Origin: Beroe ovata
Taxonomy: Eukaryota; Ctenophora; Nuda; Beroida; Beroidae
NCBI GenBank assembly: GCA_946803715.1
Contig: CAMPET010000162.1
Location: forward strand, 62,001-126,000
Direction: 5' to 3'
Length of the DNA: 64,000 nucleotides
Shown here: in pieces, positions 19,301 through 25,715 of the stretch
How the letters are laid out: every line of letters starts with the position of its first letter
Position numbering within the stretch: position 1 is the first letter of the stretch
Program-made: the position numbers and the translations under genes
Notes under the pieces: generated by a model
Seen by the model: only the letters and a program-made list of their open reading frames with translations
Database searches by the model: none
What the model was told of the DNA's origin: nothing

Positions 19301-20657
19301 AGGCTGGCAGAATAGCGTCCGACATAACCTCTCCCTCAACGATTGCTTCATGAAGGTACATGCGTACGACCGAGTTCATATCTGCTCTCTTCTATGAGTA
19401 TAATTCCGCTGATAAAACCTGTCAAAATTTGTTTTTATCAAGAATTGCTTCTCCAAACTCAAGGAACTCACACTATTTTCTCTCTCTAAAGATCATCAGA
19501 GAGCCTGGTCGACCGGGAAAGGGCAACTACTGGGCTCTAGACCCCGCAGCCGAGGATATGTTCGATAATGGGAGTTTCAGAAGACGCAGGAAGAGATTCA
19601 AGAAGACCGGTGAGTACAAACTGGAATACCTAATGTACCAGCAGATATGCCGAATTCCGATCCTTTGTAAGTGATTGAGTTTTAAAGATATACTCTAGGT
19701 AAGGCTCAGTTTAACAAGTACCATCCACCAGGAGCGAAGGGAAATGCACAGAAAGGGAAGAAATCGGAGCCCTTCGACTCGGAAATGACCGATGTCATCA
19801 CAGAGAACAAGTGTCCTCAGACTCCCGACCACAACAACCTTGTTGGTCAGCGGCAAAGTGGTAACCATGGTGACATGGGGACCATGGATGTTGAACCCCA
19901 GGTTACAGATCTTGCACCCTCCAACCTTTCCCTGGCACCCAACCCTTTCTTCTGCAATGGGAATGATGGTGGCGCAGCTAAAAGAGCAATGAATCAGAGG
20001 AGAATGAACATTCAGATGAATGAGAGGATGGCGATGAAGAATTGTCACCAGATTCAATTTGTTTCACCTGCCCATCAGATACCCACGGCATTCGTGGTAA
20101 GTCAAGATTCTGTCGGTTATTTTGAAATTCAAATTGTCCAATTTCAATCATTTTCACATGTGACCTCTCATGTGATGCCGAGGGTCAATCAGAGGGAACT
20201 TGTTTATTTGGACAATCAATCATGGTGCAATATGATCGTGTTTTGCCAAGGTCATTCCCTAATCATACGTATTGCCTAATCATGTACCTATTGTCAGTTG
20301 TCACTATGGTCATTACATTTACACATTGATGCGTTTACTCATTGTTCAATACCATCCTCCAATGAGCAGCACTAACAAACATATAAATTCCAGGAAGCAT
20401 TCGAGTCCACATCGACCCTATCGCACATGGACACTCCTGACACGAGCGTTGATCCGGCCACCTTCCTGACAACCCCTCCCCACACTCCTCCTACAACCAC
20501 TGGGGGAGCAGTATTCAATCTCCCTAACATCGCAACAACATCAACTGCCATGACACCCATCCAGTACCCTTCCACTATTGAGAGCAACATTGTTGCTGCA
20601 AGCAACCTCGTCCAGCTATCGAGCAACACTGAGACCTCGCCTCTCGCTCCATCCTAA
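16346..20657 (+). CDS. Forkhead-box transcription factor 1 (FoxD/FoxE-like)
   Basis: Seven exons with compatible phases: 16346-16657, 16827-17055, 17186-17297, 19235-19355, 19492-19609, 19699-20096 and 20394-20657 (TAA), 517 residues. The Ser/Pro/Tyr-rich N-terminal 180 residues precede the forkhead domain, which is split over exons 3-5. It has [14 protein letters not shown], then [17 protein letters not shown], then [11 protein letters not shown] and [11 protein letters not shown]. The recognition helix is canonical except for Val in NSVRHN. The [10 protein letters not shown] and RRRKRFKK wing resembles FoxD and FoxE, but subclass assignment needs a tree. The C-terminal region is Asn/Thr/Pro-rich. 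The start is the first ATG in frame after the CACGTG cluster. Intron 3 is 1.9 kb; the others are short. It is a nuclear DNA-binding regulator and sits in tandem with the paralogue at 22879. Confidence 0.85.
17718..17762. repeat. CA-rich microsatellite in forkhead gene 1 intron 3
   Basis: An interrupted CA/CACA run within the long third intron. Confidence 0.85.
19498..19605 (+). repeat. Near-identical exon tract shared by the two forkhead genes (copy 1)
   Basis: These 108 bases match 24966-25073 with one difference (19563 C versus T at 25031, silent). The neighbouring forkhead exons differ at roughly a quarter of positions and the introns do not align by eye. The tract stops at or near the exon edges. 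Confidence 0.85.
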
Positions 20658-22878: not shown

Positions 22879-25715
22879 ATGACGTCGAAGTGTTTTGACG
22901 ATGCCAGGAACTCCAATGACATCAAATCAGAACCAGTGCAGAGCATACCCCCACACCATGGTACCCTGCGTGAGAAGATTCCCAATAACAACTTCCCTAC
23001 GACCAGCTGCTGCCTACTTCCACAACTGATATCAGATAGTCTGCTACCACCACCTGCACCACCCCTTATCCAGGAGTACCATCCAGTGTTCTCATCACCA
23101 GGGTCATCGTCTAGGAGTGTGTTAATCCCCAGACATCAACATTCTGGAGTGGGAGTGGGGAACATTCCAGTTCAAACACTGAACTCCATGAGTCCACAAT
23201 TACAGTATCCTGGCTTGCCCAATCCGTTATCAATGGCTGACGTGAGGCATTCCTTTTCTCATCATGATCTGAATCGACAGAATGCAAATCAGCCAGTTGC
23301 AATTGATCAGAAAAACATCTTGGGGCCCCCAAAACTCGATAATCAGAGATTTGTTGAGGCGAGTGATCCAGTTAGATATCACATTCACCAGTCATCTCAT
23401 GATTCACTTTGCTCCTGATGTAGAAACTAGTGAATTCCTAGTTCCTGGTCTTTGTAATTTTAAAACCGTATTCTTGACATAATTTCAAAGTCCCTGAGAT
23501 TATCGCCTCCCTTTCAGGTCCCCTGGCAGCCACGCCCATCACAACTCCATGGCGGTCAGATCAACTCAGGACAAACACACCCCAATCATCTTGCAGAGTA
23601 TCCTGTTGCTATGGGGGAACCGCTCTCTTGTTACCTTGACAACAATATCCTCAACTTCATGCCCAAACGTAAGAATCTAGCCTGGAAATTATATTAGAGT
23701 TCTTCGTTAGAGTGGTGTCAGAGTGTGGTGTAAAATGAAATGTTTATCAAGGCAAGGAACAGGTATGTCAAGTGCATTGTTTCGAATTAAGAGTTCATGA
23801 CCAAGTACTGAATAGTGGTATCAAGGGAAATGCACATCAAACTGGACATAACAAAGCTGAAGTATACTTATAGGGAGGCGAGAATCGACACATGATACAG
23901 GGTTTTTTTTGGCACACCCTGTATATTGATATGTTAACCAACCTTCTCTTGTCTCAGAGAGGAGTCGAGGGAGAAACCCAGCCACCTCGAAGTCTCCCTA
24001 CTCTTACATCGCTCTGATCACGATGGCCATCAAGAATTCCAAAGACAAAAGGTGAGATGAGCTTGTCGATTCCAACGGCAGGCTACCTATACTACTATAT
24101 TATTGTTCAATTGGTCTGCAACAGTGCAATATGGTCTAGTTCAAGCCAAGCCATATCATTGAACTGATAACCAATATGAAGCCAACGCATTGATCACGTA
24201 GTACAACCCGACACAAGCTCCCAACCAAACAAGATGAAATGATGAACATGAAAAATGAACATGTTGTGCCATACAGTAAAGTTTGTTTGTTTTACCTAAT
24301 ATTGTTATTCTTTGCAATGTAAACATTGTGAGGCGCTAGGTCAAGAGGAGTGGCACAGTACCATGGGTAGAGCGAGAGTTTCATCGTTACCATGGATACA
24401 GCCAATCACATGCTCTAATTCATACCACATGACAAGTACATGATGTCTAATGGAATTATCTTCATTCATCCATGCCGATTTGTATATTTTCTGCGAAACA
24501 TACATTTATTACCAACTTACTAATTCAACTGCTCAAATATATAGGACAGCTTTGATGAATCATTAAATTTTAATTTGATAAAATATCATGACTCTAGAGT
24601 CAGAGTGACATGAAATTGAGTGAGTCACTGCTACGAAATTCAAGCAATATTTCTGCTGCATTGATTTTACACCTCTTCCCCATAGGCTGACTCTGGCAGA
24701 GATCTACGAGTTCATCATGAAGCAGTTCCCGTACTACAGGAACAACAAACAGGGCTGGCAGAACAGTATCCGACATAATTTGAGTCTAAACGACTGCTTC
24801 ATCAAGGTTCGTGATAGGAATATCGGCAATTTGATGATGAATTGCGAGCCAGAATTAATAAATCATCTAATCCATATGATGTCTTTTGAAAGATGGTACA
24901 CTGTAACCAAATCATAACCACACTGTTACCATGGTAACAGCTTATTCTCACTCTGCCAGGTACCAAGAGAGCCTGGTCGACCGGGAAAGGGCAACTACTG
25001 GGCTCTAGACCCCGCAGCCGAGGATATGTTTGATAATGGGAGTTTCAGAAGACGCAGGAAGAGATTCAAGAAGGTGAACATCTGTTCTGGTGAGTACCTA
25101 AAAGGGGAAGGGCGTATACCAATCTCTTTTTCGGTCATTACTAATCAGTATTTGCCATTTTCGGAGAAAACTGAGGGAAAACCCAGAGTAAACTCAAGCA
25201 TTCTCCACTGACACATCTCAATATCTTATCCACCCACAGATTACCACACCCCATCTGTACGGAGAGTCACCTATGATACCAGCTCCAGCCTGACTACAAC
25301 TTCGGCCGTGATGTACTCCGACACCTGTGGCATTCCAAATGAGGAGAGACCTTTTCTCACTCCGAATAGCGTTCCGACTCATGGACCCTGTCCAACAAAC
25401 CAATACCATCTTACTCCAATGATCCAACATTCACCTACTGATAGGAGAAGTAGTGAAGTTCCGGTGCCGGTGCCAGAATCAGACTATTTTCATCACCCGT
25501 CTATCTTCACATCAGGACAGGTGTGTTGTTAATCTATAATAAAATTAAAAAAACCTCCAGTCTTGATTAGACCCTTATAGTACTGTGAGTCGTCTATAAT
25601 TGAGACTCTTAATCCGCCACAGGTAGCTCGTGAGACGGATTCGAGTCATCAACACTGTACTGAGCTCATGAATAGTGCAATGACGTCAGCATCACCATCC
25701 CAGCACCTATCTTGA
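22879..25715 (+). CDS. Forkhead-box transcription factor 2 (FoxD/FoxE-like paralogue)
   Basis: Seven exons: 22879-~23370, 23518-23668, 23958-24051, 24686-24806, 24960-25089, 25240-25520 and 25623-25715 (TGA), about 453 residues. Phases match throughout if exon 1 ends at 23370 (donor GTTAGA, weak). The intron positions inside the forkhead domain are identical to those of forkhead gene 1. The domain reads [14 protein letters not shown], then [17 protein letters not shown], then [11 protein letters not shown] and [11 protein letters not shown]. The usual KPPYSY is KSPYSY here. N- and C-terminal regions are Pro/Ser/His-rich and share little with the paralogue. It is a nuclear DNA-binding regulator; subclass is uncertain. 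It arose by tandem duplication, with a later homogenised exon 5. Confidence 0.85.
24966..25073 (+). repeat. Near-identical exon tract shared by the two forkhead genes (copy 2)
   Basis: Partner of 19498-19605, differing at one base in 108. It ends exactly where the two coding sequences diverge (ACC G versus GTG AAC). Confidence 0.85.

What the first reader, a model, noticed from the sequence alone, without database searches (positions are those of the whole stretch)
19498..25073. Gene-conversion-like tract confined to one exon of two tandem forkhead genes
108 bp of exon 5 (19498-19605 and 24966-25073) differ at a single silent site. The other forkhead exons differ at about a quarter of sites, and the flanking proteins are hardly alignable. 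The tract covers wing and C-terminal basic residues of the forkhead domain and ends at the exon boundary. Selection on protein alone would not preserve synonymous sites, so recent conversion (or an assembly chimera) is implied.
Basis: partly seen in the sequence, partly recalled or inferred. Interest (0 to 1): 0.8.

Follow-up and report, generated by a model that had tools for sequence, protein, structure and literature searches.

The report
Copied exon in paired forkhead genes
Two neighbouring and otherwise very different gene-regulating (forkhead) genes share one almost letter-identical 108-base stretch, most simply because one gene recently overwrote that part of the other, an ordinary process caught in an unusually clean example.

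Summary
19498-19605 and 24966-25073 differ at 1 of 108 bases, a silent Phe codon. In the same genes exon 3 differs at 16/63 and exon 4 at 29/120 aligned sites; pS there is 0.69 and 0.94, against 0.045 in the tract. Identical codons at shared residues: 33/34 in the tract, 22/50 outside (Fisher 1.1e-7). One correction: the tract starts 6 bp inside exon 5 and stops 4 or 16 bp before the donors, not at the exon boundary. Introns 3-5 show no similarity. Other forkheads of this genome share 39/102 codons with gene 1 here, so general silent-site constraint is unlikely. No overlapping frame, RNA fold or Rfam match. Two genomic copies were found, on a gap-free 21-kb stretch. Best reading: recent interlocus gene conversion between tandem FoxD/E-like genes, probably of a comb jelly, possibly Beroe. 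It resembles the converted homeobox of Capitella Dlx genes. Known kind, clean example.

The parts
19498..19605 (+). tract copy 1, 36 codons ([36 protein letters not shown]) in exon 5 of forkhead gene 1
   Evidence: 99.07% identical to copy 2, one silent difference at 19563
24966..25073 (+). tract copy 2, the same 36 codons in exon 5 of forkhead gene 2
   Evidence: two matches found in the 77.8-Mb genome, E <= 0.001
16346..20657 (+). forkhead gene 1, predicted 7 coding exons: 16346-16657, 16827-17055, 17186-17297, 19235-19355, 19492-19609, 19699-20096, 20394-20657; 517 aa
   Evidence: splice consensus and frame; Pfam PF00250 E 1e-38; orthologue-like P0007 aligns over domain and flanks
22879..25715 (+). 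forkhead gene 2, predicted coding exons 22879-23241 (first exon uncertain), 23518-23668, 23958-24051, 24686-24806, 24960-25089, 25240-25520, 25623 to stop near 25715; 410 aa
   Evidence: Pfam PF00250 E 5e-40
19492..19609 (+). exon 5 of gene 1; the 6 bp before and 4 bp after the tract do not match gene 2
24960..25089 (+). exon 5 of gene 2; the 6 bp before and 16 bp after the tract do not match gene 1
19235..19355 (+). exon 4 of gene 1 (control exon)
   Evidence: 29/120 aligned sites differ from gene 2, pS 0.94
24686..24806 (+). exon 4 of gene 2 (control exon)
17186..17297 (+). exon 3 of gene 1, start of the forkhead domain (control exon)
   Evidence: 16/63 aligned forkhead sites differ, pS 0.69
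23958..24051 (+). exon 3 of gene 2 (control exon)

Best explanation
Two old tandem FoxD/FoxE-like forkhead genes, same strand, tract copies 5,468 bp apart, exchanged sequence by interlocus (ectopic) gene conversion in the recent past. A break in exon 5 of one gene was repaired using exon 5 of the other as template. Copying stopped where homology stopped, at the diverged exon edges and introns, so the converted patch is the whole conserved coding block and nothing else. SHOWN: localised near-identity including silent sites; near-saturated silent divergence in exons 3-4; no intron similarity; two copies found in the genome. INFERRED: the break-repair mechanism, that it is recent relative to the duplication, and that protein conservation of this block kept enough homology for pairing. 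UNRESOLVED: donor, number of events, date.
For: pS 0.045 (rough 95% interval 0.001-0.226) in the tract against 0.69 and 0.94 in exons 3 and 4. 33/34 against 22/50 identical codons at shared residues, Fisher 1.1e-7. 0 of 200,000 permutations reach the run, on all sites or on silent codons only. Same intron positions and phases in the domain, so paralogous exons. Introns 3-5 and exons 2 and 6: local alignment scores within those of 200 shuffles each. Other forkheads of this genome match gene 1 at 39/102 and gene 2 at 39/103 codons in this segment. Both copies carry R at tract residue 5 and K at residue 36, where the gene-1-like P0007 and the Mnemiopsis protein P0009 have K and R; K at 36 occurs in 3 of 165 matched segments of the listed homologues, a vertebrate-heavy set.
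Against: The protein-level evidence is thin. In exons 3-4 the full site splits are 2 for orthology and 2 for grouping gene 1 with gene 2, against 0 and 2 in the tract, so shared residues alone do not single out exon 5. Gene 2-P0009 orthology has no flank support (best E 4.0 and 1.4). If exon 5 was once as diverged as exon 4 (about 76% identical), it would have been a poor substrate: a review puts conversion mainly above 80% identity, with low rates below (PMC3924818, passages). No reads, no population data and no orthologous DNA were seen.
Confidence: 0.87

Rival explanations
1. The silent sites of this exon are held by a second function of the DNA or RNA (exonic enhancer, RNA structure, splicing code, overlapping gene), so both copies stayed identical since the duplication.
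For: The tract covers the most conserved protein block and stops on codon boundaries where protein homology stops; constraint would give the same edges.
Against: The five other reading frames contain stops. RNA folding z-scores are 0.12, 0.52 and 0.56. No Rfam match in 16000-26600. Other forkhead genes of the genome share only 39/102 codons with gene 1 there. Constraint on 21 of about 22 silent sites over 108 bp would be extreme.
Confidence: 0.05
2. Assembly or consensus artefact: one copy was overwritten by the other during error correction, gap closing or scaffolding.
For: The assembly does contain artefact-like duplications: 3 of 7 single-N joins in the window are flanked by 85-91% identical sequence that resumes at the first base after the N. 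The paper on the possible source assembly describes short-read contigs with ALLPATHS error correction, Platanus and SSPACE (PMC11184263, section 7).
Against: Both copies lie in the N-free stretch 8091-29270. Flanks are unlike each other and each copy is in frame with its own splice sites. A 25%-diverged exon shares too few words for correction or gap filling to swap it exactly, and with two direct copies and unique flanks only one order of the pieces is possible (both inference). A single silent difference is kept. Correction could, however, have removed a few further differences.
Confidence: 0.05
3. Conversion was templated by spliced RNA or cDNA of one gene rather than by genomic DNA.
For: The tract includes no intron base; a cDNA template would give the same patch.
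Against: Introns share no similarity, so genomic templating would also stop there. Exons 4 and 6, contiguous with exon 5 in cDNA, show no co-conversion. No reverse-transcription mark was looked for.
Confidence: 0.03

Closest known systems
Capitella teleta Dlx pair (PMC3199776; passages read, among them from the abstract)
   Same: Linked developmental transcription-factor duplicates, near-identical DNA in part of the DNA-binding domain (a 150-bp GENECONV tract, a second of 31 bp), remainder of the genes highly diverged, read as gene conversion.
   Different: Homeobox, tail-to-tail pair, tract runs into the intron; here forkhead, head-to-tail pair, tract wholly inside one exon.
Hexapod engrailed/invected (seen only as cited inside PMC3199776; the paper itself is not held)
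   Same: Duplicated transcription-factor genes for which gene conversion and concerted evolution are reported, as cited.
   Different: Recurrent across insects as I recall it; here a single genome, recurrence untested.
Mnemiopsis leidyi photoprotein gene clusters (PMC3570280; passages read, among them from the abstract)
   Same: Ctenophore tandem genes with GENECONV evidence of recombination (nine pairs on one scaffold).
   Different: A highly similar family of light-producing proteins; here two old, strongly diverged regulators.
Caenorhabditis paralogue conversion (PMC3966223; passages)
   Same: Conversion between paralogues, which the paper says is usually reported for exons, since introns diverge faster.
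   Different: The paper gives cases in which tracts include introns (15% of detected events in one study it cites).

Membership tests
interlocus gene conversion | local excess identity including silent sites within otherwise diverged paralogues | tested here: met
   pS 0.045 against 0.69/0.94; permutations 0 of 200,000
interlocus gene conversion | paralogous positions with diverged flanks on both sides | tested here: met
   same exon, position and phase; flanking introns unrelated
interlocus gene conversion | segment not generally conserved at silent sites in the family | tested here: met
   39/102 and 39/103 codons shared with other forkheads of the same genome
interlocus gene conversion | paralogues closer to each other than to orthologues in the tract only | tested here: inconclusive
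   2 tract residues group gene 1 with gene 2, but exons 3-4 also hold 2 such sites against 2 for orthology; orthologous DNA not available
interlocus gene conversion | non-reciprocal transfer with identifiable donor | not testable with these tools
   needs DNA of related species
interlocus gene conversion | confirmed in reads or individuals | not testable with these tools
   no reads held
forkhead transcription factor | PF00250 domain above the curated cut-off | tested here: met
   131.8 and 136 bits, cut-off 27
FoxD/FoxE-like subfamily | subfamily placement by sequence | tested here: inconclusive
   closest solved structure for gene 2 is GENESIS, which I recall to be FoxD3; many FoxE-named hits among proteins; no family tree was built

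The most novel reading that the evidence does not exclude
Exon 5 has been re-homogenised repeatedly, kept so by selection that wing and C-terminal basic residues match in two linked regulators, while the rest of the domain, the tails and the introns diverged: module-level concerted evolution of a transcription-factor domain in an early-branching animal phylum.
Probability: 0.15. Interest if true: 0.55.

Novelty: new member of a known kind. Interest (0 to 1): 0.3.

Why it matters
It is a clean natural example of how far conversion can reach between strongly diverged paralogues: one 108-bp coding block, with silent sites elsewhere in the domain near saturation. It warns that a forkhead tree built on the domain could be pulled wrong, since the tract alone groups the two paralogues while the whole proteins do not. 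If the homogenisation proves recurrent, it would show selection acting on one structural module of a DNA-binding domain in ctenophores.

Tried and rejected
Glass sponge as the source: considered because of genome size (about 80 Mb). Dropped because the Aphrocallistes vastus paper (PMC10282587; abstract and sections 2.1, 2.2 and 4.4 read) treats scaffolds above 40% GC as bacterial candidates, the window has 42.6% GC, and the named hit most identical to both genes is from a ctenophore.

Overlapping reading frame: rejected, stops in the five other frames. RNA element: fold z-scores 0.12, 0.52, 0.56, no Rfam match. Third copy or mobile element: two genomic matches (the tool calls its counts lower bounds for repeats and large families); no match of a 27-base tract word in viral contigs. 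GC-raising conversion bias: tract GC3 0.56-0.58 is not above exon 4 (0.70-0.78), though total GC of the tract (0.53-0.54) is above exons 3-4 (0.44-0.47).

Four-sequence topology tests (1,000 RELL replicates, flagged by the program as too few for AU): exons 3-4 do not separate orthology from grouping gene 1 with gene 2 (delta logL 2.0, best is orthology); the tract favours grouping gene 1 with gene 2 (delta 9.4, KH p 0.045) but on two residues, so its tiny AU value was disregarded; the whole domain slightly favours grouping gene 1 with gene 2 (delta 3.9, not significant); the whole proteins favour orthology (delta 22.5 or more), driven at least in part by gene 1-P0007.

25 loci were held; the five that hold the two genes themselves (L001, L002, L006, L008, L023) and the two contig-flank loci (L024, L025) were left out. 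Of the 18 searched, 12 gave rows and 10 gave rows in the tract segment; identical rows from overlapping loci were counted once, and some codons in overlapping alignments may count twice or be misaligned across introns.

Literature: (gene conversion, forkhead, exon, tandem): 40 papers hold the four terms, 15 were listed, none about forkhead exon conversion by title. (2, 2, 2, 3 and 9 papers, all listed): no forkhead case by title; two searches gave the photoprotein paper, another the Dlx paper again, another the two conversion papers cited, nothing relevant. One search looked for ctenophore Fox genes: 111 papers, 15 listed, none opened. These searches cover open-licence papers only.

My notebook says 3 of 6 single-N joins; the recount is 3 of 7.

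Full report
WHAT WAS CHECKED. Gene models by splice consensus give gene 1 with seven coding exons (16346-20657, 517 aa) and gene 2 with the same exon order and phases through the domain (22879-25715, 410 aa, first exon uncertain). Both proteins have one Pfam forkhead domain. The tract is 36 whole codons inside exon 5. It begins 6 bp after the acceptor in both genes and ends 4 bp (gene 1) or 16 bp (gene 2) before the donor, so the claim that it ends at the exon boundary needs correcting.

IS IT MORE THAN CHANCE. Across the aligned 297-bp domain there are 51 differences: 16/63 in exon 3, 29/120 in exon 4, 5/6 in the first two codons of exon 5, and 1/108 in the tract. Silent divergence (counted as pS) is 0.69, 0.94 and 0.045 for exon 3, exon 4 and the tract; at residues that are the same in both proteins (Met and Trp left out), codons are identical at 8/16, 14/34 and 33/34 (Fisher 1.1e-7 for the pooled 22/50 against 33/34). 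None of 200,000 permutations of all sites, or of the 84 silent-informative codons, gives such a run. Protein conservation alone therefore does not explain it.

CONTROLS. (a) Same segment, other genes: aligned to other forkhead loci of the same genome, gene 1 shares 39/102 codons at identical residues and gene 2 39/103 in the tract segment, like the rest of the domain (176/421 and 182/415) (12 of 18 searched loci gave rows, 10 in the tract segment). The segment is thus not silent-constrained in this family. (b) Flanks: introns 3, 4 and 5 and exons 2 and 6 give local alignment scores within those of 200 shuffles. (c) Second codes: the other five frames all have stops, folding is no better than shuffles, nothing in Rfam for 16000-26600. 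(d) Copy number: two matches in the 77.8-Mb, 534-contig genome.

RELATIVES. The protein most identical to both genes is P0007 (unnamed source, 88% over the domain), which also aligns with gene 1 in both flanks (BLASTP E 2.5e-15 and 9e-11). The named hit most identical to both is Mnemiopsis leidyi P0009 (82-83% over the domain). Seven named records (P0001-P0006, P0008; vertebrates and a nematode) score more bits than P0009 at only 60-75% identity in those two searches, for a reason I did not look into; in the profile search P0009 and P0007 come first. P0009's link to gene 2 rests on a few domain sites only. P0007 and P0009 have K and R at tract residues 5 and 36, while both window genes have R and K. 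That fits a transfer after the change. But exons 3-4 also hold two sites that group gene 1 with gene 2 (residues 19 and 34), equal to the two for orthology, so the protein evidence is suggestive only and may hint at an older exchange or parallel change.

SOURCE AND ASSEMBLY. The genome is most likely a ctenophore, possibly Beroe. Evidence: the forkhead relatives above; 42.6% GC in the window against 41.97% for B. ovata (PMC11184263, passages); no glycosyl hydrolase 18 match in the genome, while the B. ovata paper reports no catalytic chitinase but one chitinase-like protein with that domain (section read), so this agreement is imperfect; and single-N joins with duplicated flanks, which fit SSPACE scaffolding (my inference) as used for B. 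ovata (section read). The published B. ovata assembly is larger, 91.6 Mb in 4,989 scaffolds, so G000 would have to be a part or another version. Three of seven single-N joins in the window are flanked by 85-91% duplicates, so this assembly does make local duplications. The forkhead pair lies in the N-free stretch 8091-29270, and its copies sit in different contexts, which that artefact would not produce.

MECHANISM. Interlocus gene conversion between head-to-tail paralogues is the simplest reading. Homology for pairing would exist only in this block, whose protein sequence is 34/36 identical even to Mnemiopsis, and strand exchange would stop at the unrelated exon edges and introns. A review gives mean tract lengths of the order of 10^1 to 10^2 bp and says that conversion mainly occurs above 80% identity, at low rates below (PMC3924818, passages). 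The length is therefore ordinary; the low starting identity, if exon 5 was once like exon 4, is the less usual part. It is eased if exon 5 was never so diverged because of earlier events. One difference in about 22 silent sites gives a wide interval (pS 0.001-0.226); no date can be given.

COMPARISON. The nearest published parallel found is the Capitella Dlx pair, with a 150-bp tract in the homeobox and intron of linked, otherwise diverged genes (PMC3199776, passages). Ctenophore photoprotein clusters show GENECONV signals (PMC3570280, passages). I found no forkhead case among the listed titles of the searches named in Tried and rejected, which cover open-licence papers only. It is a new member of a known kind.

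Noticed in passing
16060-16224 and 22670-22720 (also 11950-12040, 13437-13561, 34496-34690): Clusters of the E-box CACGTG, often as TCACGTGA, lie shortly upstream of the predicted start of both forkhead genes. TCACGTGA: 15 in the window against 1.14 expected; CACGTG: 42 against 13.1; none of 100 shuffles as high in either case. Possibly a promoter element of this organism.
   Followed up: partly
8090, 29271, 56124: Single-N joins flanked by 85-91% identical sequence that resumes at the first base after the N (7238-8053/8091-8904, 27877-29270/29272-30750, 55631-56015/56125-56515). They look like unmerged scaffold joins or two haplotypes, so tandem duplications here should not be taken at face value. 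Of the other four single Ns, 42443 has only short (about 40 bp) repeat matches and 40941, 45787 and 52653 have none.
   Followed up: yes
38818-39834: Open reading frame with SIX1 N-terminal domain and homeodomain matches: a SIX-type homeobox gene close to the forkhead pair.
   Followed up: no
G000 (whole genome): No Pfam glycosyl hydrolase 18 match at E <= 0.001, partly in keeping with the reported lack of catalytic chitinase in Beroe ovata, whose paper still reports one inactive chitinase-like protein.
   Followed up: partly
forkhead residues 19, 33, 34 in exons 3-4 of both genes: D, K and Q shared by gene 1 and gene 2 but not by P0007 and P0009; might mark an older exchange outside exon 5, or parallel change.
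   Followed up: no
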